Under the pieces are notes generated by a model, which saw nothing but the letters and a program-made list of their open reading frames with translations, was not told the origin of the DNA and searched no databases. From Minisyncoccota bacterium (GTDB lineage: Bacteria; Patescibacteriota; Minisyncoccia; Phycocordibacterales; UBA9973): 46,398 nt of DNA. The position numbers were made by a program, and so were the translations under genes. This document shows positions 1,105 to 46,398 of this stretch, in pieces (position 1 is the stretch's first letter; each line of letters starts with the position of its first letter). The DNA lies in NCBI GenBank assembly GCA_018061865.1, contig JAGOTH010000005.1:1-46398 (forward strand), in the 5' to 3' direction.

Positions 1105-4100
1105 TTATTCACTTTCTTTTGTTAGTTTTTCTTTTCGACCGTCATTTTCAACATTAAGTGTTACATCAAGAGATAGTCCTCGTAGGTAGTTCAACATCAC
1201 ACCGAGAGAAGCTGGGGCATTTGGGGCTTTAAGCTTTTCTCCTTTGATTATCGAATCAAATGTCTGTGACCTTCCCATTATGTCGTCAGATTTTACTGTA
1301 ATCATTTCTCTTAGAGTATATGCGGCACCATATCCTTGAAGTGCCCACACCTCCATCTCTCCGAATCTCTGTCCTCCACCTTGCGCTCGCCCTCCGAGAG
1401 GTTGCTGAGTGATAAGAGAGTACGGACCGATTGAACGCATGTGGATCTTGTCTTCCACCATGTGGTGCAGTTTCAACATATACATGTATCCAACAGCGAT
1501 GTCTTGTCCGAAAGCCATTCCGTTTCTTCCATCATATAGAGTTACTCTTCCTGTTTCTGGCCATCCTGCTTTTACAAGTTCTTCTTTGATTTCTTCAGCT
1601 GTTGCTCCAGCAAATGGAGGAACGATAGCTTGATAACCAAGAGAGTTCGCAGCAAGTCCTAGGTGCATTTCGAAAATTTGTCCTAGGTTCATACGAGAAG
1701 GAATACCAAGTGGTGTAAGAAGAATGTCGATTGGAGTTCCGTCCGCCATGTATGGCATATCTTCTTCTGGAAGAATTGTAGAGATAACTCCTTTGTTTCC
1801 GTGTCGTCCAGCAAGTTTGTCTCCCACTGAGATGTTTCGTAGTTGCGCTACTTCAACAATAACTTTTTTCAAAACACCAGATTCTAGTGAATGCCCTTGT
1901 TCTCTTGAGAAAACTTTTACGCTGATAACTCTTCCCTTTTTTCCGTGATCAATTCTCATTGATGTGTCTTTTACATCACGAGCTTTTTCAGAAAAGATTG
2001 ATCTAAGAAGTCTTTCTTCTGCTGTTAGTTCTGTCTCACCTTTTGGTGTGATTTTTCCAACAAGAATATCTCCTTCAGAAACTTCCGCTCCCATTCGAAC
2101 GATTCCATCTTCATCTAGGTCTTTTAGTTTTAGTTCTCCAACGTTTGGAATATCTCGAGTTGTGATTTCCGGACCAAGTTTTGTGTCACGAACAACACAG
2201 ACAAATTCTTCTATGTAGATTGAAGTGAAAACGCTATTTTTAACAAGTCTTTCAGAGATAACAATCGCGTCCTCGTAGTTGTGTCCGCTCCAAGAAAGGA
2301 ATCCAACAAGAATGTTTTGCCCAAGAGCGATTTGTCCGTTAACAGAAGTGCTTGTGTCAGCAAGAACTTGTCCTTTTTTAACTTTTTGTCCAACAGAAAC
2401 ACTTGGTCTTTGGTGGTGAGCAGAAAATTGGTTTGTTCTTGAGAAGTTAACAAGATTGTATCTGTGAATTTTGTCTTTGCTGTCTTTAACAATAACTTTC
2501 TTTGAGTCAGCGTGAGTTACTTCTCCATCGCTTTCAGAAACAACTAGTCTTCCTGAATCTCGAGAAGCAAATCCTTCCATACCAGTTGCCACAAGTGGAG
2601 CCTCTGGAGCTACACAAGGAACAGCTTGTCTTTGCATGTTTGATCCCATCAGCGCACGGTTCGCGTCGTTGTGTTCTAGGAAAGGAACCATTGATGTCGC
2701 AATAGAGAATGCTTGGTTAGGAGCTACGTCAACATAATCAACTTCATCTTTTGAAATAAGTCCTGGTTGAGTTTTTATTCTAGCTTCAACTGTTGCATCT
2801 GTAATTTTTCCGTCTTTGTCATATCGGAGTCCAGCGTGTGCAATAACTCGCTCTTCTTCTTCGAGAGCGTTTAGGTATTCAATCTTTCCTGTAATTCTTC
2901 CTTTTTCTACTTTTACATAAGGAGTTTCGATAATTCCGAATTCGTTAACTCGAGCATATGTAGACAAGTGAAGGATAAGTCCAATGTTTGGTCCTTCAGG
3001 AGTGTTAATAGGACAAACTCTTCCGTAGTGAGAAGTGTGCACGTCACGAACTTCAGCTCCTGCTCTCTCACGAGTAAGTCCTCCGGGACCTAGCGCTGAT
3101 AGAGTTCGAAGGTGTTCCACCTCGTCCAGAATATTGTCTTGTCTCATGAATTGAGAAAGCTGGTTTGTAGTGAAGAATTCTTTAATTCTTGCTTGAAGAG
3201 GTCTTTGGTTGATGATTTGAATTGGAAGAGCAGTGGCAAGATCAACTGTAGACATTCTGTCTTGAATGTTTCTCTTGATTTGCATCATTCCTGTTCGGAT
3301 TTTTTGTTCTAGAAGTTCTCCAACATATTTCACTCTTCGGCGTCCGAGGTGATCGATGTCTTCGATTTTTGCTCCTGGAGTAATGTTTAGTTCAAAAACA
3401 TATTTAACAATGTTAACTAAATCTTCTTTTGTTAGAGTTCTAACTTTTAGATCCTTTTCGTCTGTTCCTCCACCGAATTGTTGGTTAATTCTGAATCGTC
3501 CAACAGAAGAAATGTCATATCTGTCAGGACCAAATACTGTTCCATCTATAAATTCTTTTGCGTTGTCAGCAGTTGCAAGGTCTCCGTCTCGCAATCGCTT
3601 GTATACTTCTACGTAAGATTCCATTACTGTCTTTGCGCTATCTTTCGCAAGAGCTAAAGCAATAGATTTTTGTTCGTGTTCTTTTGTGAATAACTTCAAC
3701 ATTTCTGCATCAGTAATTCCTAGAACTCTAAGAAGTGACGTGATTGGGAATTTTCTCTTCTTGTCGATTCGGACATATAGAATACCGTCTGTATCAGTTT
3801 CCATTTCAATCCAAACTCCTCGTGAAGGTATGATTTTTGCCCCAAAGAGTCTCTTTCCCTTTAGTTCATTTTCTGTAAAAAATACTCCAGCTGATCGAGC
3901 AAGCTGAGGAACGATAACTCGTTCTACTCCGTTGATAACAAAAGTTCCGTGACCTGTCATTATTGGAATGTCAGCCATGAAAATTTCTTGCTCTTTTGTT
4001 GCACCGCCTAGTTTTGAAATAAGTTTAACTCGAGCTTTTATTGGAGCTTCGTAGTTAACCTTGTTTGCCTTGGCATCAAGTTCTGAACACTTTGGCTCTC

Positions 4101-4314
4101 CAACTGAGAAAGACAAAAAGTGAAGTTCAAACTTTTTACCTGAATAATCTGTAATCGGAGTGAATTCTTTCATCACTTCAACGATTCCTTTTTCGAGCAA
4201 AGCTTTAAATGAATTAAGCTGAGTCTCGATAAGACTTGGGAATGAGACAAAAGGTTCTCTATATTTAGAGAAGTGTTTTTGCTCGCGGACTGTTGTTGTT
4301 TTTTGTGGAGACAT
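1105..4314 (-). CDS. rpoB: RNA polymerase subunit beta
   Basis: This is the beta subunit of RNA polymerase, about 1069 residues from the chosen ATG, near the short end for the family. It contains the rifampicin-pocket region (QLSQFM ... SALGPGGLTRERAGAEVRD), the NTPEGPNIGLI segment, GDKLAGRHGNKG, and the C-terminal GGQRFGEMEVWALQ block. I prefer the ATG at 4312-4314 (MSPQKTT) to an in-frame TTG at 4345-4347, because no Shine-Dalgarno sequence supports the longer form and the extra residues overlap a leader hairpin. The usual upstream rplJ-rplL genes are absent; truB lies upstream instead. A promoter at 4454-4482 gives a leader of about 130 nt. The pocket carries Arg where E. coli has Asp516 (see findings). 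Confidence 0.98.
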   Translation of the reverse strand: MSPQKTTTVREQKHFSKYREPFVSFPSLIETQLNSFKALLEKGIVEVMKEFTPITDYSGKKFELHFLSFSVGEPKCSELDAKANKVNYEAPIKARVKLISKLGGATKEQEIFMADIPIMTGHGTFVINGVERVIVPQLARSAGVFFTENELKGKRLFGAKIIPSRGVWIEMETDTDGILYVRIDKKRKFPITSLLRVLGITDAEMLKLFTKEHEQKSIALALAKDSAKTVMESYVEVYKRLRDGDLATADNAKEFIDGTVFGPDRYDISSVGRFRINQQFGGGTDEKDLKVRTLTKEDLVNIVKYVFELNITPGAKIEDIDHLGRRRVKYVGELLEQKIRTGMMQIKRNIQDRMSTVDLATALPIQIINQRPLQARIKEFFTTNQLSQFMRQDNILDEVEHLRTLSALGPGGLTRERAGAEVRDVHTSHYGRVCPINTPEGPNIGLILHLSTYARVNEFGIIETPYVKVEKGRITGKIEYLNALEEEERVIAHAGLRYDKDGKITDATVEARIKTQPGLISKDEVDYVDVAPNQAFSIATSMVPFLEHNDANRALMGSNMQRQAVPCVAPEAPLVATGMEGFASRDSGRLVVSESDGEVTHADSKKVIVKDSKDKIHRYNLVNFSRTNQFSAHHQRPSVSVGQKVKKGQVLADTSTSVNGQIALGQNILVGFLSWSGHNYEDAIVISERLVKNSVFTSIYIEEFVCVVRDTKLGPEITTRDIPNVGELKLKDLDEDGIVRMGAEVSEGDILVGKITPKGETELTAEERLLRSIFSEKARDVKDTSMRIDHGKKGRVISVKVFSREQGHSLESGVLKKVIVEVAQLRNISVGDKLAGRHGNKGVISTILPEEDMPYMADGTPIDILLTPLGIPSRMNLGQIFEMHLGLAANSLGYQAIVPPFAGATAEEIKEELVKAGWPETGRVTLYDGRNGMAFGQDIAVGYMYMLKLHHMVEDKIHMRSIGPYSLITQQPLGGRAQGGGQRFGEMEVWALQGYGAAYTLREMITVKSDDIMGRSQTFDSIIKGEKLKAPNAPASLGVMLNYLRGLSLDVTLNVENDGRKEKLTKESE

Positions 4315-4330
4315 ATAAAACGCAAAAACG

Positions 4331-4417
4331 CGGGAGATCCCGTTCAAGATAGGTTATTTTATTATTCGCACTCGATAGTATGCAAAACCCTCTTTTTTAT
4401 TGATAATAAAGGGGTTT
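4331..4417 (-). promoter_or_regulatory. rpoB 5' leader with two stem-loops
   Basis: The predicted rpoB leader contains two inverted repeats. One pairs AAACCC (4385-4390) with GGGTTT (4412-4417) across an AT-rich, partly paired interior. The other is CGGG-AGAT-CCCG at 4331-4342, about 17 nt before the start codon. They could act in attenuation or shape translation initiation; this is inference from sequence symmetry only. Confidence 0.35.
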
Positions 4418-4453
4418 GAAATGGGCAAAACTCAATCAGCCAAACCGACACTT

Positions 4454-4482
4454 ATCCTAAACTAAAAACGGGAAATGGTCAA
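4454..4482 (-). promoter_or_regulatory. Promoter of rpoBC
   Basis: On the minus strand, TTGACC (4482-4477), a 17-bp spacer and TAGGAT (4459-4454) form a good sigma-70-like promoter. The -35 box overlaps the truB stop codon. It lets rpoBC be transcribed separately from truB. Confidence 0.6.
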
Positions 4483-5306
4483 GAGGAAAAATCCCCAACC
4501 CTCACCCTCTTTATTCTTAAGGCTAAAGCAGGACATCCGAGAGACTTCCCTATTTTTTCAGCAAGCACTCGCATATACGCACCACTCTCACAGGAAACTT
4601 TTATTGAAATAACTAAAACATTTTCATTACCTGAAATATTTTTTAGATTATTCCATCCAGAAATTATTTCTTCTTGTCGGAAATCTCCTTTTACTTTTTT
4701 TATTCTTTCAACAGACTCGTCCGCCACTTCCATCACTTTCATCATTCTAGTGTTTTGCAAAATACTAGAATGAATTATGACGGTATGTTTTGGGATATTA
4801 GTATTAAAAATTTTTCCTAAACGAGCCAGAGAAAAAAGTGGTTTTCCATCAACGGGCTTTGAAGAATACTTCGGATACTCTTCCTCAAATTCCCCTTCAC
4901 AATCCTTTAATGTCTCTTGTATTTTTCTTAAAAAACTCCCGTCTAATAATTTTTCATGGTCTGGCCCCGCTTCTTGCGGGGAGACCCAAGGACCTGAAAA
5001 ATTATTAGATAAAAAAGAAAGATTTGAATCTTGTATTACACCAAGAATATCTCCCGTATCACTCGATACACCCAAAAGCACTTCTACCTCGTATTCCTTT
5101 GAAAGCTTTAAATATTCCTCTTTCTTGTGAACAGACTCTCCAGTCAGAATAATCAAAAGCCCTTCTGCCATTGGATCAAGCCGTCCTGCATAAGTTGCCT
5201 TTTCTTCTTTTGGAATTACCCCTTCTTCTTTTGCACGATTAATACACTCAAGCGGAGTTTCCCCTTCTTTTTTGTATAAAACAATTACTTTTTCCCTTTC
5301 TTCCAT
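4479..5306 (-). CDS. truB: tRNA pseudouridine(55) synthase TruB
   Basis: TruB makes pseudouridine 55 in the T loop of tRNAs. The catalytic motif YAGRLDPMAEG is present, with Asp44 as the expected nucleophile, and the length (275 aa) fits short bacterial TruB. The start overlaps the end of trmD by 22 bp; a TTG about eight codons downstream is an alternative start. Two palindromic elements lie in frame inside the gene. A GC-rich hairpin at 4958-4986 encodes part of a WVSPQEAGPDH stretch, and a 28-bp palindrome at 4744-4771 encodes about ILQNTRM. Both fall outside the recognisable catalytic motif. TruB-TrmD adjacency suggests a tRNA-modification operon. Confidence 0.93.
   Translation of the reverse strand: MEEREKVIVLYKKEGETPLECINRAKEEGVIPKEEKATYAGRLDPMAEGLLIILTGESVHKKEEYLKLSKEYEVEVLLGVSSDTGDILGVIQDSNLSFLSNNFSGPWVSPQEAGPDHEKLLDGSFLRKIQETLKDCEGEFEEEYPKYSSKPVDGKPLFSLARLGKIFNTNIPKHTVIIHSSILQNTRMMKVMEVADESVERIKKVKGDFRQEEIISGWNNLKNISGNENVLVISIKVSCESGAYMRVLAEKIGKSLGCPALALRIKRVRVGDFSS
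4744..4771. repeat. 28-bp palindromic repeat inside truB (ATTCTAGT family)
   Basis: The sequence starts ATTCTAGTG, has TTTTGCAAAA at its centre and ends TACTAGAAT. It is self-complementary except for one G/T pair. A relative with three differences lies at 31467-31494 between genes. This copy is translated in frame within truB. Confidence 0.75.
4958..4986. repeat. GC-rich hairpin element inside truB
   Basis: The arms GGTCT + GCCCCGC and GCGGGG + AGACC pair around a TTCTT loop, with a one-base bulge. The element is in frame in truB and more GC-rich than the surrounding coding sequence, which suggests an inserted REP-like palindrome. Confidence 0.65.
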
Positions 5307-5983
5307 TCTTCTATTTTTTTATGATCTCCAGAAAGCAGAACTTTCGGTACACGATATTTTTTACCTTTATGCTCAAGAATTTCTGGTCGAGTATAAAATT
5401 CACTTGAAGAAACTCTTTCTTCTTCTAGAGACTCAAACTTTCCCAAAACTCCCGGAACTTGTCTCGACATACAATCAATAACAACCATCGCAGGCAATTC
5501 CCCGCCAGTTAAAACATAATCTCCAATTGAAATTTTTTCAGTCTTCAATATTTTATCTACTCGAGCATCTATTCCTTCATACCTTCCACAAATAAGAATA
5601 ATATCTGTATATTTACGAGATGCTTGTTTTGCGTATTCTGTTGTAAACTTTTTCGCTGAAGGATAAAAATTTATAATTTTTATCCGAGGCGTTCTGCGAA
5701 GCTTAAGCGAAGCAGAATTTATTTTATTTATCACACTCTCAACAGCCTTTATAACTGGCTCTGCACGCAGAATCATTCCAGGACCTCCAGCGTAAGGACG
5801 ATCATCAACCTGAGCCGATATATTTCCATCAGGCCAAACTTTTTTGTATTTTCCAGTCACAAATTTTCGGGGATTATAAAAAGCTACTTTTATCTTTTTT
5901 TCCTTTATAGCCCGAGCAATAATAGAGCTACCGAAATAACTTTCAAAAGACTCTGGGAATAATGTAACTATGTGAAATCTCAT
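5285..5983 (-). CDS. trmD: tRNA (guanine(37)-N1)-methyltransferase TrmD
   Basis: TrmD is the SPOUT-fold enzyme that makes m1G37 next to the anticodon using S-adenosylmethionine, and so prevents +1 frameshifting. The 232-residue protein has the N-terminal MRFHIVTLFPE strand, GGPGMILRAEP, and the knot motifs LICGRYEGID and IGDYVLTGGELPAMV. It is slightly shorter than typical (about 240-250 aa). In the variable region before the knot, a 26-bp palindrome (5692-5717) encodes about SASLKLRR. truB overlaps its 3' end. rimM and rplS, often neighbours of trmD, are not here, while khpA and rpsP are about 1 kb upstream. A CATAAT sequence ends 8 nt before the ATG. Confidence 0.96.
   Translation of the reverse strand: MRFHIVTLFPESFESYFGSSIIARAIKEKKIKVAFYNPRKFVTGKYKKVWPDGNISAQVDDRPYAGGPGMILRAEPVIKAVESVINKINSASLKLRRTPRIKIINFYPSAKKFTTEYAKQASRKYTDIILICGRYEGIDARVDKILKTEKISIGDYVLTGGELPAMVVIDCMSRQVPGVLGKFESLEEERVSSSEFYTRPEILEHKGKKYRVPKVLLSGDHKKIEEWKKGKK
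5692..5717. repeat. Palindromic element inside trmD (GAA-GCYTWRGC-GAA family)
   Basis: Arms TTCTGC and GCAGAA enclose GAA-GCTTAAGC-GAA. The core matches the intergenic element at 6004-6029 (GAA-GCCTTGGC-GAA), although the outer arms differ. The element is translated in frame in trmD. Confidence 0.7.
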
Positions 5984-6003
5984 TTTAATTGATTATGTGC
6001 TTA

Positions 6004-6029
6004 CCCGCCGAAGCCTTGGCGAAGGTGGG
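6004..6029. repeat. Intergenic palindromic element upstream of trmD
   Basis: CCCGCC-GAA-GCCTTGGC-GAA-GGTGGG has the same layout as the copy inside trmD: outer stem, GAA, inner stem, GAA, outer stem. Palindromes with this core are common in Parcubacteria genomes as far as I recall; I could not search for them. The remaining intergenic DNA to 6094 shows short tatagcgatta-type repeats and nothing else I recognise. Confidence 0.75.
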
Positions 6030-6094
6030 GGAATTCATAATATTAGTATATAGCGATTAGCGTATAGGGAATAGTGAAAAAATGCAAACAAAAA

Positions 6095-6110
6095 GGCGAT
6101 GGTGATCGCC
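6095..6110 (-). terminator. Terminator after hypothetical gene 6120-6665
   Basis: On the minus strand GGCGAT-CACC-ATCGCC is followed by TTTTTG, a compact intrinsic terminator 10 nt past the stop codon. Confidence 0.7.
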
Positions 6111-6119
6111 TTAAAAACT

Positions 6120-6665
6120 TTATCCGTTTATTACTAGAATTCGAAGGGAGAATGCAAATGGTACATTTTTCCTTTTTCTCCCAAAGCAAATTCGTGAGAT
6201 GAAATAATATATAACCTCATTTGGTATATCCTTTTCTTCTATACTGCCACCCATACCCTCATGTGAAAGCCAGTATTCCATTTCCTTTTTCTCTTCTTCA
6301 TTCAAGTTCCAACATAATTCCACAATATCTCCTGTTTCAAAAGAATCTACGGTAAAACTTGCGTTGGTGTCGTATGCGAGTTTTATTTTTTCAAACCCAT
6401 CAGCAACTGGATACACTCCATCTCTTCCACCGGGGCCGTCTAATTTTATTAGACCTTTATCAAAAAATAGAGAATTCCTGTATACACTTATTTCACTTCC
6501 TAGGGCAAAGATACTCACGTCGATATTTTTAAAATATACCGAATTGTCGTACTTACTTTCCTCTTCTTGATAAGGACTTTTTATGCAAAACTGTTTTCCG
6601 TAACCATCCTCTACCACAGAAAATTGTATTTTTTGTACATAAGATACTGTAATCAGCTTGTTCAT
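6120..6665 (-). CDS. Hypothetical protein, 181 aa
   Basis: I do not recognise this protein. It has no signal peptide or membrane segment and alternates short beta-rich and acidic stretches, with a Gly-rich turn (LDGPGGRDG) in the middle and a basic CFGRKRKN patch near the C-terminus, so a small soluble beta-rich protein is likely. It has its own promoter (6683-6710) and terminator (6095-6110), making it a single-gene unit set between khpA and trmD, genes that are normally close together. That placement and the self-contained promoter-terminator pair suggest an accessory insertion into the translation cluster. Confidence 0.8.
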   Translation of the reverse strand: MNKLITVSYVQKIQFSVVEDGYGKQFCIKSPYQEEESKYDNSVYFKNIDVSIFALGSEISVYRNSLFFDKGLIKLDGPGGRDGVYPVADGFEKIKLAYDTNASFTVDSFETGDIVELCWNLNEEEKKEMEYWLSHEGMGGSIEEKDIPNEVIYYFISRICFGRKRKNVPFAFSLRILVING

Positions 6666-6682
6666 CTTTAAAATTTTTCTTC

Positions 6683-6710
6683 ACTCTACTCTTTTCCATA
6701 GTTTTGTCAA
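6683..6710 (-). promoter_or_regulatory. Promoter of hypothetical gene 6120-6665
   Basis: Minus strand TTGACA (6710-6705), 16-bp spacer, TAGAGT (6688-6683). The -35 box directly continues the T-run of the khpA terminator. Confidence 0.55.
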
Positions 6711-6721
6711 AAAACAAAAAC

Positions 6722-6741
6722 CACCTCAGTTTCCTGAAGTG
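6722..6741 (-). terminator. khpA terminator
   Basis: Minus strand CACTTCAG-GAAA-CTGAGGTG followed by GTTTTTGTTTTTTG. It has a stable GNRA-type loop and a long U-tract. Confidence 0.85.
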
Positions 6742-6770
6742 ATTTTTCTTTTTACTATTCGCTTATTGTC

Positions 6771-37644: not shown

Positions 37645-37684
37645 GGTGACCAACAACTATACGATCGTATAGTTGTTGGTCACC
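37645..37684. repeat. 40-bp perfect palindrome, left copy
   Basis: The half-site is GGTGACCAACAACTATACGA followed directly by its exact complement, with no spacer. It is identical to the copy at 42139-42178. It lies 33 bp past the stop of 37718-38713 and upstream of 37569. Confidence 0.95.
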
Positions 37685-41586: not shown

Positions 41587-42120
41587 CTAAAGTTTGAAAT
41601 GCTTCCTTATCCTCTTGTCTCCAGAAATTTTCTCCGCCAGGATATACTGCATATTTTTCCCAAAATTGTGCTCCACCCTTAGAATTTCAATGTACTTCTC
41701 ACAAGGATACGGAGACACCCAGACACTCCTCTGCATCTGAATAAATCCAAGACTCTTTAGCTCATCCCGAAAAATATCCCTCTTATTCCTTTGGTTCTCT
41801 CTGACATCAAAAGAAACAATCCTCCACTTCCCATCCCATTTGGGTCTTTTTATTAAAGTAGGATTTACCTTCATCAAAACAATTTCGCCCTTTGGAGTCA
41901 ATTCAAACTTAGCTCCTTTATTTTTTATGTATCCGGCGTCCACTAAAGATTTAAACTTTTTATTTACCTTATATCTAGATTCTTTTTTATTTAAAACTTT
42001 TTTAATAAACGGGATTACCTGAACAATATTCGGAGCAGCTGAAATAACAAAGATTCCACCTGTTATCGCAACAAGAATTAAAATATTTTTTGTTAATACC
42101 CCCAGTCGAATATTTTTCAT
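41587..42120 (-). CDS. PaaX/Cas2-like protein with N-terminal membrane segment
   Basis: From the ATG at 42118-42120 (177 aa) there is a hydrophobic segment (KNILILVAITGGIFVISAA), then a winged-helix-like part (RYKVNKKFKSLVDAGYIK ... FELTPKGEIVLM), then a ferredoxin-fold domain of the PaaX C-terminal/Cas2 type (KWRIVSFDVRENQRNKRD, LGFIQMQRSVWVSPYPCE, and YILAEKISGDKRIRKHF). The VSFDV strand keeps the Asp found in Cas2. No CRISPR array or cas1 is present, so a regulator or DNA-binding role is more likely. AAGGGGAG upstream is one of the few Shine-Dalgarno-like sequences here. The right palindrome ends 18 bp before the ATG. Confidence 0.82.
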   Translation of the reverse strand: MKNIRLGVLTKNILILVAITGGIFVISAAPNIVQVIPFIKKVLNKKESRYKVNKKFKSLVDAGYIKNKGAKFELTPKGEIVLMKVNPTLIKRPKWDGKWRIVSFDVRENQRNKRDIFRDELKSLGFIQMQRSVWVSPYPCEKYIEILRVEHNFGKNMQYILAEKISGDKRIRKHFKL

Positions 42121-42138
42121 ATAACTCCCCTTTACCGC

Positions 42139-42178
42139 GGTGACCAACAACTATACGATCGTATAGTTGTTGGTCACC
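42139..42178. repeat. 40-bp perfect palindrome, right copy
   Basis: Identical to 37645-37684: two exact complementary 20-base halves, GGTGACCAACAACTATACGA and its complement, without a loop. It lies between the msrB stop and the PaaX/Cas2-like start and would be in that gene's 5' region. Confidence 0.95.
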
Positions 42179-43048: not shown

Positions 43049-43107
43049 GCACGAATAGATTAGAAAGTATAGGCTAGGCAAACACCTTGTCGAATAAAGG
43101 CTTTCTG

Positions 43108-43195
43108 CGGAGGATGAGGGATTCGCCTCTCGTCGTTGCTACGACTCGAAACCTTCGTCAGCCAAGCTGACTGCGGCCCGCGGTTCGAATCTTCT
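43108..43195. other. Hairpin-rich, tRNA-3'-end-like stretch
   Basis: On the minus strand the left end reads CGAATCCCTCATCCTCCGCA, like the T arm and acceptor 3' strand of a serine tRNA, and the other end carries GATTCGAACC. Between them are two clean hairpins, GTCGT-TGCT-ACGAC (43132-43145) and GTCAGC-CAA-GCTGAC (43157-43171). A full tRNA does not fold: D and anticodon arms are missing. It may be a repeat derived from a tRNA end or an old integration site. From 42944 to 43565 there is no gene I can support. Confidence 0.4.
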
Positions 43196-43244
43196 TTTTC
43201 TTTCAATATTTTTAAAAATCAAATAACGAAAGTTATCAATTTTG

Positions 43245-43540
43245 GCGGTATTCATTGTACAAAATTCGAACTTATTTTGAAAGTAATCCTGATGATACCG
43301 AATACTAGCGTTCCCCGCGCGCTACGCGCCTCTGTGCGAAGCACAGAGCTTCTGCAAAGCAGAAGTGCGGGAAAACGCTAAATGCAAATGCGGACTCGGT
43401 TTTGCGAAGCAATTTTGCGGGAGGAGGATTCGCAAAAACGAGACTAAGTTTTTTGAAATTCGGCGGGATTGGGTTTCTGCCCCGCAGGAGGGTGCGGGAG
43501 GAATGCGGGGCGGGCATTTCGGAATTTTGGCGGGCGGGCT
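43245..43540 (+). repeat. 296-bp inverted repeat, left arm
   Basis: This arm matches the reverse complement of 46003-46298 as far as I can compare by eye, over the same length. It is GC-rich and packed with small hairpins, including CTCTGTGC-GAA-GCACAGAG and CTTCTGC-AAA-GCAGAAG. Open frames within it (for example 43305-43517 minus and its mirror 46026-46238 plus) are low-complexity by-products of the palindromes, not believable genes. Confidence 0.93.
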
Positions 43541-43565
43541 TAAAAAGAAAAACTTTTGAATCAGG

Positions 43566-44141
43566 TTATTTTGTTTCTTTCAGGAAAAGTGAGAACGAAG
43601 TAAAAATGTCTAGCATATTATCATAAAGTTTTTTCTTTTTCGAAAAATCCATTTTTTGTCTTTTTGTAAAGACGGAATCATTATGTCCAAAATCAAGACG
43701 AGCAACCCCATCCTCAAATTGGGTAACTTGAAGCAATAGTGACTTTCTTTGTTTATTAAACCTAGATAATAGAGATTGTATTAAAATAAATTTCTTTTGA
43801 TTGGCTTTCCTCCAATTTTTGTATTGTAAAGTCTCACCATTTTTTATTGACTCATTTATATAATCTATATATTCATTATTATTCATTTTACTAACAGATT
43901 TTTTACCAATTTTAGCCAAGTATGTTTTAAGAAATTTATTTTCATTCAAAAATCTTGATTTGGGTCTTTTACCTAATTCAAAAATAACACATGGAACAAT
44001 CAGACTTTCTTTATCTATAATTCCACCTGAAACCTGCACGTCTAATTTCAAATTTTCTAAAAATAAGGCAGTGTTTAGAAGTCCAGCATGTTTGACTTTA
44101 AATTTTTTCTCTAATTGTTTAATTTTTAAATTTACTTTCAT
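43566..44141 (-). CDS. Hypothetical protein inside the inverted-repeat module, 191 aa
   Basis: I do not recognise this. It is a strongly basic, Lys-rich protein (KVNLKIKQLEKKFKVKH at the start, KRQKMDFSKKKKLYDNM near the end) without signal peptide or membrane segment, so nucleic-acid or ribosome binding is possible. The middle has a SGGIIDKESLIVPCVIFELGKRPKSRF stretch that looks like a beta-rich core. It starts 22 bp after the phosphoesterase stop on the same strand, so the two probably form an operon. Its 3' end is 26 bp from the left repeat arm. Confidence 0.75.
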   Translation of the reverse strand: MKVNLKIKQLEKKFKVKHAGLLNTALFLENLKLDVQVSGGIIDKESLIVPCVIFELGKRPKSRFLNENKFLKTYLAKIGKKSVSKMNNNEYIDYINESIKNGETLQYKNWRKANQKKFILIQSLLSRFNKQRKSLLLQVTQFEDGVARLDFGHNDSVFTKRQKMDFSKKKKLYDNMLDIFTSFSLFLKETK

Positions 44142-44163
44142 AGTTTTTTAAAATATTCGCAAA

Positions 44164-45981
44164 TTATTCTGGCAATTTAACAATGCCATCAGTAGAGATG
44201 GTTGAGTATGCTAGAGTCTTTTCAATACTTACTCCTTCATTTTTGTATACGCTTCTATCGATAGAAATTATTGGAAGATCAGCAAACCCCTTAATGGCAG
44301 CATTTTCATCACTATGCCCATGTGTAACAATGTTAATTCCTGAATCTTTTAAAAACTTTTTTAAATTATCTTTTTCTTCACTAGAAATAGAATTTGATTC
44401 AGAGAAATTTTCTCTTGAATATGAGGATGTGGAAATAAACTCATCGCGTAAAACATTAAAATATTTTTTTTCTTGATCAGTTAATTTATTTTGAGGGTCG
44501 TCATTTTCTAAGTATACACGTAAGACTTTTTGATAAAACATATTTATCTTATCTATGCCTTCTTTTATTGAAGAATCTTTAGAAAAATCTTTAATAATTC
44601 CCACCATTCGTGGAGTTAGATTTGTATGTGTGTATAAACTATCATCATGAAGTGTAATTAATTTTTGATTAACAAAAGCATCTTTAAACAAAGCATATTC
44701 TTGTTTGTTGTTTATACTTTCCTTAATTACACTTCTATTTGCAATAATAGTACTTCCAATTTGGTTTTGATATTTTTTATCGAGAGTGTCTATAAAAGTA
44801 AACAATGTTTTTCCTGCTTCTTCGTAGCTGTTATTTTCAAGTAAAGCGCAAAATTTTTCTAAGCTAATTTGCTTATCCAGCATATCTTGATAACCTCTTT
44901 CGTATGCCTCAATCACATTTGGAGGATAATCAGGGTTATTTCTAATTCTGTCTAAAGTAGCTTTCTTTTTTTGAACATTTTTTTGAAAATCTTGTCCAAA
45001 GACTTCATCTTTATTTTTTTTAATATTTTCGTACAAATCTCTTGTACTTTCAAGGGGTAAAAATTTTAGAAGTTCAAGATTCCCAGTATAACCTGACAAC
45101 CTATATGCCATATCTTCTTCTACTGGCTTACCTTGTTCTGTACTAAAACCACACAGTACGGCATTGAACATATTTTCATGATTCCCTGAAATCCAATCTA
45201 TATTACCACCTTGTATTTTTGCTTGATTCTGTAATTCTTGTAGTTTTTCATATACGTCCATTCCTTCCGGTGACCTATCTCCTAAAATGTCTCCGATAAA
45301 AACAACATTTTCATTGCCTCCACTCCAAACAATATTTCCGTTTTGGTCACTTGAAATAAGATTTTTATATTTTAGGTGTTCTATAAAACTTTTATAGGAA
45401 CCATTCAGGTCGCCAATTGCAGTAATATTTGTAGATCGCTCCATCGTTGGCAATGTAATTTCTTTTTCTAGAATAACTTCAGGGGACGCAAGAGTCTCAG
45501 TGGGAACCGCCGCCTCAATACGTTCCTTATTTTCTGAAACTTTACTTTTTTTAGCATACTCTTGCGCATATGCGATTCCGCGCACTTTCCATGCTTTGAG
45601 CTTCTCGTACTGCTTTTCATCAACAGGAATTGCAAATGTCCACATCTCTTCAAGAAGTTCAGGTTCATTTATTAGTGACGACCATTTTGATGGAATCATC
45701 GGCATATCAGAAAGGTCAATAGATTTCTCATTTTTAGGCAAACCTAAATTTTCACGGATTTCTTCAATCTTCTTTTCATCTTCTGTTTCTCTATTCTCTT
45801 TGACCTGTTCTGCAAGTCTTTTTTCAACATTAGATTTAAATGATTCTGGCAAATCTTGAAAAATGGAATCTTTAGATTCTCCGCTTTTTATACGATTTAC
45901 ATATTCTTCAATTTTCTTCTCTCCGCCAGTAAGAGGTTTGTTGTTATCTAAAGATTCCATAAAGTATTCATACTTTATCAT
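44164..45981 (-). CDS. PPP-like metallophosphoesterase inside the inverted-repeat module
   Basis: From the ATG at 45979-45981 this is about 605 aa. The first ~170 residues are charged and helical. The phosphoesterase domain then shows GDLNG (about 190-194), GDILGDRSPEG, SGNHENMF and a late THGHSDENAA, the order of the PPP serine/threonine phosphatase fold. The first motif has Asn193 where the family normally has His (GDxHG), so metal binding may be altered. The long insert between GNHE and the last His contains a coiled, Lys/Glu-rich part. There is no signal peptide, so it is cytosolic. Frames extending further upstream enter the right repeat arm and are not coding. Confidence 0.85.
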   Translation of the reverse strand: MIKYEYFMESLDNNKPLTGGEKKIEEYVNRIKSGESKDSIFQDLPESFKSNVEKRLAEQVKENRETEDEKKIEEIRENLGLPKNEKSIDLSDMPMIPSKWSSLINEPELLEEMWTFAIPVDEKQYEKLKAWKVRGIAYAQEYAKKSKVSENKERIEAAVPTETLASPEVILEKEITLPTMERSTNITAIGDLNGSYKSFIEHLKYKNLISSDQNGNIVWSGGNENVVFIGDILGDRSPEGMDVYEKLQELQNQAKIQGGNIDWISGNHENMFNAVLCGFSTEQGKPVEEDMAYRLSGYTGNLELLKFLPLESTRDLYENIKKNKDEVFGQDFQKNVQKKKATLDRIRNNPDYPPNVIEAYERGYQDMLDKQISLEKFCALLENNSYEEAGKTLFTFIDTLDKKYQNQIGSTIIANRSVIKESINNKQEYALFKDAFVNQKLITLHDDSLYTHTNLTPRMVGIIKDFSKDSSIKEGIDKINMFYQKVLRVYLENDDPQNKLTDQEKKYFNVLRDEFISTSSYSRENFSESNSISSEEKDNLKKFLKDSGINIVTHGHSDENAAIKGFADLPIISIDRSVYKNEGVSIEKTLAYSTISTDGIVKLPE

Positions 45982-46002
45982 TTTTAGAGTATTTTTTCCA
46001 GT

Positions 46003-46298
46003 AGCCCGCCCGCCAAAATTCCGAAATGCCCGCCCCGCATTCCTCCCGCACCCTCCTGCGGGGCAGAAACCCAATCCCGCCGAATTTCAAAAAACTTAGT
46101 CTCGTTTTTGCGAATCCTCCTCCCGCAAAATTGCTTCGCAAAACCGAGTCCGCATTTGCATTTAGCGTTTTCCCGCACTTCTGCTTTGCAGAAGCTCTGT
46201 GCTTCGCACAGAGGCGCGTAGCGCGCGGGGAACGCTAGTATTCGGTATCATCAGGATTACTTTCAAAATAAGTTCGAATTTTGTACAATGAATACCGC
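46003..46298 (-). repeat. 296-bp inverted repeat, right arm
   Basis: Inverted partner of 43245-43540. The arms face each other across 2462 bp holding the hypothetical and phosphoesterase genes. The phosphoesterase start codon lies 21 bp from this arm. Confidence 0.93.
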
Positions 46299-46398
46299 AA
46301 ATTTTCGAAAAGGGTTTCAGAACCAAAAATATGGTCGGCGCGAAGCGCCGTCTGTTCTGCATTCCCCCCACAAAATCCTGATTCTGCAAGGATTCGCC
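46299..46398. other. Unassigned sequence at the right window edge
   Basis: No gene is supported here. There is a GGCGC-GAA-GCGCC hairpin, and the window ends with GGATTCGCC, the same nine bases found near the left arm at 43119-43127 (inside GGGATTCGCC). That may be the start of another repeat copy cut by the edge. Confidence 0.4.

What the first reader, a model, noticed from the sequence alone, without database searches (positions are those of the whole stretch)
43245..46298. Phosphoesterase/hypothetical gene pair between 296-bp near-identical inverted repeats
The arms (43245-43540 and 46003-46298) have equal length and are inverted, enclosing 2462 bp with two same-strand genes that stop or start 21-26 bp from the arms. 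The arms are GC-rich and full of small hairpins, unlike the AT-rich genes. There is no transposase. This could be an invertible segment (orientation switched by recombination between the arms), a non-autonomous composite element, or a toxin-antitoxin-like or defence cargo. The near-identity of the arms implies recent duplication or ongoing gene conversion.
Basis: partly seen in the sequence, partly recalled or inferred. Interest (0 to 1): 0.76.

Follow-up and report, generated by a model that had tools for sequence, protein, structure and literature searches.

The report
Cargo half of twin-attP integrative element
The two-gene segment between near-identical mirror-image repeats is the cargo half of a mobile element, common in tiny-genome bacteria, that a serine recombinase inserts mostly at tRNA gene ends and that carries a second, inverted copy of its own attachment site.

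Summary
The repeats are real: 299-nt inverted arms (one mismatch; 296 nt exact) around 2.46 kb with a metallophosphoesterase gene and a hypothetical gene. They are not a stand-alone element. Contig C2 breaks inside a second arm pair (B) encoding the C-terminus of a large serine recombinase (LSR); the other end of B opens contig C17.

Relatives show the whole plan: X | A-cargo-A' | B'-LSR-B | tRNA 3' end (25 complete elements, one in a closed genome). All 52 relatives with enough flank carry the B arm pair (two further out); 0 of 12 more distant LSRs do. Left, middle and right junctions read as attL, a complete inverted attP, and attR. The half-site motif sits 5 bp further out in attP than in attB, the serine-integrase signature. 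A sister genome shows the empty site.

So the arms are half-sites of attP, and the excised circle should carry two inverted attPs. One cassette occurs in two genomes core to core, 98.6% identical but inverted, beside LSR modules only 84% identical. Arm hairpins covary strongly. An LSR integrative element is well supported; what the second attP does (cassette exchange, 2-micron-like amplification, ssDNA folding) is inferred. No excision was observed.

The parts
43242..43540 (+). Outer arm A; its outer end is the attL junction X-GCGG-A
   Evidence: 299-nt inverted repeat; attL-type junction as in 25 complete elements
43245..43248 (+). Core GCGG of attL
   Evidence: Boundary shared by left, middle and right junctions in related elements
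43306..43380 (+). Three-hairpin cloverleaf in arm A (TAGCGTT...AACGCTA)
   Evidence: DNA fold; covariation in 13 related arms
43566..44141 (-). Cargo gene 2, hypothetical protein, 191 aa
   Evidence: ORF; no Pfam, NCBIfam or PADLOC hit; no relative in the 59 other genomes
44164..45981 (-). Cargo gene 1, calcineurin-like metallophosphoesterase, 605 aa
   Evidence: PF00149; homologues at 71%, 40% and 40% in G001, G034 and G002; none of those genomes gives an arm hit
46003..46301 (-). Inner arm A', inverted copy of A
46270..46330 (-). Middle junction read on the minus strand: B-TTTGCGG-A, a complete inverted attP
   Evidence: attP-type middle junction as in related elements; TTCGAA motif 16 nt beyond the core
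46299..46398 (-). Start of arm B (97 of about 120 nt), encoding the C-terminal end of a large serine recombinase; cut by the contig end
   Evidence: 97% over 74 nt to the LSR-coding arm of L055; second copy at C17:24-127, 98%

Best explanation
The segment is the cargo module of an integrative element moved by a large serine recombinase (LSR). Integrated order: X | A-cargo-A' | B'-LSR-B | target (usually a tRNA or tmRNA 3' end). B plus core plus A is the attP site. The element carries it twice in inverted orientation, so the integrated copy shows attL on the left, an intact inverted attP between cargo and LSR, and attR at the target. The LSR joins attP to the target attB; excision would need attL x attR and a directionality factor that was not identified. 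The inverted second attP makes the cargo (core-A-cargo-A'-core) a unit bounded by two inverted crossover sites, which can be exchanged or inverted independently of the LSR module; recombination between the two copies also keeps the arms identical. Shown by sequence: anatomy, junctions, target, an empty site, one exchanged and inverted cassette, covarying arm hairpins. Inferred: that the LSR uses the second attP, the circular intermediate, and regulation by the small HTH gene often found next to A'. My confidence applies to the LSR element with two inverted attPs; cassette exchange as the use of the second copy I hold at about 0.4.
For: Window end and C17 start are the two outer ends of one B arm pair. 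25 complete elements with attL/attP/attR triples. B arm pair in 50 of 52 LSRs with enough flank; in the other two (L131, L165) an inverted pair lies further out. 0 of 12 more distant LSRs; on a FastTree tree the trait needs 2 changes against a mean of 11.6 in shuffles. tRNA on the opposite strand within 150 nt of the LSR 3' end in 58 of 80 loci, tmRNA in 2 more. Empty site: tRNA-Ser(cga) and tRNA-Val(gac) adjacent in G029, separated by the 4.1-kb element in G020. attP/attB motif offset peaks at 5 bp (0.52 against at most 0.41 at any other shift, 19 elements), as in serine integrases (PMC3783163, passages). Cassette exchange and inversion: L053 versus L101, 98.6% core to core, LSR module 84.3%. 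Two further such elements in the own genome (C9/C12 and C5/C6).
Against: The LSR of this very element is missing from the assembly; it is inferred from both ends of its B arms. The right flank on C17 is not a tRNA that ARAGORN or Rfam recognises; three other loci are alike (L108, L110, L143). If both attPs were used alike, LSR orientation at the tRNA should be about 50:50, yet only L121 and, on one side, L098 depart from the convergent form. Several B pairs are diverged (77-94%), so identity is not always kept. The window element lacks the small HTH gene seen in 19 of 25 others. Serine integrases are reported not to recombine other site pairings such as attP with attP (start of the abstract of PMC3783163).
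Confidence: 0.83

Rival explanations
1. The second inverted attP is there for copy-number amplification. The excised circle has the plan of the yeast 2-micron plasmid: two long inverted repeats holding the recombinase site, the recombinase gene in one half with its 3' end inside the repeat, cargo in the other half. Inversion during replication would give double rolling-circle replication.
For: Same geometry in all 25 complete elements; LSR C-terminus encoded in arm B; combined A+B repeat of roughly 200-500 bp in most. Double rolling-circle replication of the 2-micron plasmid: abstract of PMC3147054.
Against: No replication gene was recognised in the cargo genes scanned; serine integrases are reported not to recombine attP with attP; cargo and LSR orientation are strongly biased, not mixed.
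Confidence: 0.12
2. The inverted copies serve a single-stranded stage: the whole element as ssDNA (for instance after DNA uptake) folds so that A pairs with A' and B with B', giving one continuous double-stranded attP with cargo and LSR as loops, like the folded attP(+) of phage CTXphi.
For: Inverted attP copies nearly identical; arm hairpins covary with almost no G-T intermediates, which points to DNA rather than RNA; CTXphi carries two inverted attP sites folded in ssDNA (PMC4246890, passages).
Against: A serine recombinase cuts both strands, so joining a folded ssDNA to a chromosome would leave hairpin ends (inference); no ssDNA stage was observed; perfect hairpins can also arise by palindrome-correcting template switches.
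Confidence: 0.1
3. The segment is a phase-variable invertible island: the arms exist so that cargo can be switched by inversion (by homologous recombination or a resident invertase).
For: L053 and L101 carry the same cassette in opposite orientation; the arms are long enough for homologous recombination.
Against: 71 of 82 cargo ORFs point one way; LSR modules of that pair differ by 16%, so exchange, not simple inversion, is needed; one of the two orientations could be an assembly choice.
Confidence: 0.15
4. Assembly artefact: the inverted copy at the contig end is a false join.
For: The second arm lies 97 nt from the contig end (contig length); many related contigs also break in the arms.
Against: Same plan inside long contigs of many assemblies and in the closed genome AP024682.1; the two arms lead to different outer sequence, and the outer B sequence has its partner on C17.
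Confidence: 0.02

Closest known systems
Genomic islands and prophages integrated by large serine recombinases (phiC31/A118/SCC type)
   Same: LSR with Resolvase, Recombinase and zinc-ribbon domains; attP/attB with the 5-bp motif shift; attL and attR at the ends; cargo such as restriction-modification genes
   Different: A second, inverted, complete attP and long arm copies flanking both cargo and LSR; mostly tRNA/tmRNA 3' ends as target, which are usually tyrosine-integrase targets (start of the Islander abstract, PMC4383910)
Yeast 2-micron plasmid family (Flp/FRT)
   Same: Two inverted repeats containing the recombinase site divide the circle into two unique halves; recombinase gene end inside the repeat (2-micron details recalled)
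   Different: Serine, not tyrosine recombinase; integrates into the chromosome; no replication or partition genes recognised
CTXphi attP(+) (two inverted attP sites folded in ssDNA)
   Same: Two inverted attP copies in one element
   Different: Own serine recombinase instead of host XerC/D; copies kilobases apart; no phage genes recognised
Recombinase-mediated cassette exchange (engineered; recalled)
   Same: Cargo between inverted attachment sites, exchanged as a unit in either orientation
   Different: Natural; partners of the exchange are not known

Membership tests
Serine-recombinase integrative element | Large serine recombinase gene in the element | tested here: inconclusive
   Missing from the assembly for this element; its C-terminal codons lie at both contig ends; present in all 25 complete relatives
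Serine-recombinase integrative element | attL/attR hybrid junctions and an attP with motif offset of 5 bp from attB | tested here: met
   in the window itself attL and the middle attP are seen, attR on C17
Serine-recombinase integrative element | Empty target site in a relative | tested here: met
   For the related element in G020 against G029; not shown for the window's own site
Serine-recombinase integrative element | Excision and integration catalysed by the LSR | not testable with these tools
   Needs an experiment
Inverted-repeat transposon (IS or composite) | Transposase between or beside the arms | tested here: not met
   Only the two cargo genes in the segment; LSR beside it in relatives
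Inverted-repeat transposon (IS or composite) | Target-site duplication | tested here: not met
   Left flank and C17 right flank share only the core; junction triples in relatives alike
Phase-variable invertible segment | Both orientations found | tested here: inconclusive
   One pair of genomes, with the LSR module also replaced; strong orientation bias overall
2-micron-type plasmid | Two inverted repeats holding the recombinase site, recombinase gene end inside the repeat | tested here: met
   As the predicted excised circle of complete relatives
2-micron-type plasmid | Autonomous replication | not testable with these tools
   No replication gene recognised among the cargo genes scanned

The most novel reading that the evidence does not exclude
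A distinct class of integrative elements ('twin-attP' elements) in Patescibacteria and some other phyla whose recombination site is carried twice, inverted, in long structured arms, and whose serine recombinase uses both copies: cargo cassettes bounded by inverted sites are swapped and flipped between elements, a natural form of recombinase-mediated cassette exchange, with the covarying DNA hairpins of the arms serving a single-stranded or replicative stage.
Probability: 0.33. Interest if true: 0.82.

Novelty: new variant of a known kind. Interest (0 to 1): 0.7.

Why it matters
It would explain recurrent mirror-image repeats, contig breaks and variable gene pockets beside tRNA genes in small, mostly uncultured bacteria by one mobile-element plan, and it gives a ready set of tRNA-targeting serine integrases with their attP and attB sites. 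If the second attP is used, it is a natural cassette-exchange system, and whether serine integrases can act on paired inverted attPs becomes directly testable.

Tried and rejected
Transposon with terminal repeats: no transposase, no target duplication. Misassembly: rejected by recurrence in many assemblies and in a closed genome. Toxin-antitoxin or defence cargo in the window: no Pfam, NCBIfam or PADLOC support for the 191-aa protein, only Metallophos for the other. RNA families: none at gathering score in the window. Phage DNA: no match. Phage and plasmid tblastn with the related LSR gave only weak relatives, under 30% identity in the rows shown. IMG/VR gave 12 loci, the best of full length at 62%; no direct repeats marking an excised circle were found in the 8 of these 12 that I checked. 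Searching 397 genomes of the order (own included) for the window's metallophosphoesterase found one more relative at 40%, so the window cassette itself was not seen elsewhere. The search with the L053 cassette found a conserved stretch of about 200-305 nt next to A' in 8 of the 10 matching genomes, and longer matches of 67-72% in the other two (397 searched). Gene neighbours of L098 in 30 relatives were too distant to show its empty site. My list of elements abutting a tRNA was set by hand; L175 is in it on sequence, since ARAGORN does not call its cut tRNA. The HTH count of 19 of 25 is 16 by phmmer plus three (L125, L143, L051) by eye; of the three HTH genes sent to Pfam all three were confirmed. 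A first tree held two frame errors of mine and was redone; one search left out four rows (L148, L175, L176, L077) and counted L131 and L165 as having arms. L089, counted without arms, has a wider inverted pair of 88%. Some genomes of the relatives set and the genome contigs set are the same (for example L053 and L109 give identical hits), so loci are not all independent. Papers were seen as follows: PMC3783163 passages and start of abstract, PMC12884075 passages, PMC3147054 outline and abstract, PMC4246890 passages, PMC4383910 start of abstract only. That the twin-attP plan is not in print rests on searches of the held library only.

Full report
WHAT IS THERE. The window is the whole of contig C2 of an 18-contig, 614-kb genome. 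Near its right end lie two inverted arms of 299 nt, 43242-43540 and 46003-46301, with one mismatch beside the core. Between them are a 605-aa metallophosphoesterase gene and a 191-aa hypothetical gene, both on the minus strand. The arms fold strongly as single-stranded DNA on either strand (z -5.7 and -5.3).

THE ARMS ARE A FAMILY. Searching 60 genomes (own included) with one arm gave hits in 19, many as inverted pairs of equal identity a few kilobases apart with different contents. Fetching those places showed two nested facts: the arm pair around cargo (A, mostly 100-370 nt) abuts a second arm pair (B, mostly 94-182 nt), and the B pair encloses a large serine recombinase (Resolvase, Recombinase and zinc-ribbon domains) whose C-terminal codons lie inside B.

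THE WINDOW FITS. The nucleotides after the right arm match the LSR-coding arm B of L055 (97% over 74 nt). The only other copy in the genome, 98% alike, opens contig C17. The recombinase gene that should lie between is missing from the assembly, as expected when short-read contigs break in inverted repeats; a search of the genome with L055's LSR finds only two others, at 44-45%, which belong to two more such elements (C9/C12, arms 99.65%; C5/C6, arms 99.56%).

JUNCTIONS. A scan of genome contigs with an LSR alignment gave 80 loci from Patescibacteria, Elusimicrobia, Omnitrophota and others (names as in the record titles). Twenty of these and five relatives are complete elements. The left junction reads X-GCGG-A, the middle one (other strand) B-TGGCGG-A, and the right one B-TGGCGG-tRNA in most; the core letters differ for non-Ser targets. 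That is attL, a complete inverted attP, and attR. In 19 elements abutting a tRNA the similarity between attP arm and tRNA arm peaks at an offset of 5 bp: TTCGAA sits 16 nt from the core in attP and 11 nt in the tRNA in 8 of them. A 5-bp shift of this motif between attP and attB is the rule found for serine integrases (PMC3783163, passages).

TARGET. In 58 of 80 loci a tRNA gene lies within -30 to +150 nt of the LSR match end, always on the opposite strand (44 Ser, 9 Gln, 5 others); two more have tmRNA. In G020 the 4.1-kb element separates tRNA-Ser(cga) from tRNA-Val(gac), which are neighbours in the sister genome G029. The window's own right flank on C17 is not a recognised tRNA.

THE TWIN SITE IS UNIVERSAL IN THIS CLADE. 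Of LSRs with at least 400 nt upstream and 150 nt downstream, 39 of 41 from genome contigs and 11 of 11 relatives have the B pair, the two exceptions having an inverted pair further out; 0 of 12 more distant LSRs do (117 LSR loci were given, the rest lack flank). On a quick tree the trait needs two changes. A arms are at least 97% identical in 21 of 25 elements, B arms in 16 of 25.

CASSETTES. Cargo includes restriction-modification genes, an OLD-like ATPase, a D-Ala ligase and others. A small Cro/C1-type HTH gene stands next to A' in 19 of 25, counting L101 where it is inverted. Of 82 cargo ORFs of at least 120 aa, 71 point away from the LSR. One cassette occurs twice: L053 and L101 match core to core over 2703 nt at 98.6% (cargo interior 99.5%) but in opposite orientation, while their LSR modules are only 84.3% identical. 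So the unit between the two cores moved independently of the LSR. L098 has its LSR between two tRNA-Ser genes, as if both attPs had been used, and its genome holds an attL-type end elsewhere. L050, L052 and L061 are A-flanked cargo without an LSR beside it.

ARM STRUCTURE. In 13 related arms a cloverleaf of three hairpins plus a long hairpin show 22 of 40 pairs with changes on both sides, against 7.6 in shuffles and at most 6 in slid versions. There are few G-T cells (17 of 519, 13 of them one invariant pair), which suggests a DNA-level constraint or palindrome-correcting mutation rather than RNA.

MECHANISM. Shown by sequence: an LSR element with two inverted attPs. Inferred: the excised circle has two inverted attPs separating an LSR half from a cargo half. 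I think cassette exchange and inversion through these sites is the most likely use. A 2-micron-like amplification or an ssDNA fold are possible.

NOVELTY. The recombinase and its chemistry are known kinds; the conserved inverted attP copy in long structured arms was not found in my searches of the held papers. I call it a new variant of a known kind.

Noticed in passing
window 37645-37684 and 42139-42178: Two identical perfect 40-nt palindromes flank three ORFs, one a PaaX/Cas2-like winged-helix protein (41587-42150); perhaps operator or end sequences.
   Followed up: no
window 43100-43200: A degenerate tRNA-Ser-like stretch lies just left of attL; ARAGORN finds no tRNA there.
   Followed up: no
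L050 (G006:C5) 3101-6747: An A-flanked module without LSR carries what looks like a diversity-generating retroelement: reverse transcriptase, bAvd-like protein (below Pfam's cut-off), and an Lcl C-terminal-domain protein.
   Followed up: partly
L151 and L155, next to the LSR 3' end: In two Elusimicrobia the target is the 3' end of the tmRNA gene.
   Followed up: yes
L125, L137, L141: Tandem arrays: the LSR 3' arm abuts another element's A arm instead of a tRNA.
   Followed up: partly
C17 start (L183), L108, L110, L143: Right flanks at the core that are not recognised tRNAs; L143 and C17 look alike over some 40 nt.
   Followed up: partly
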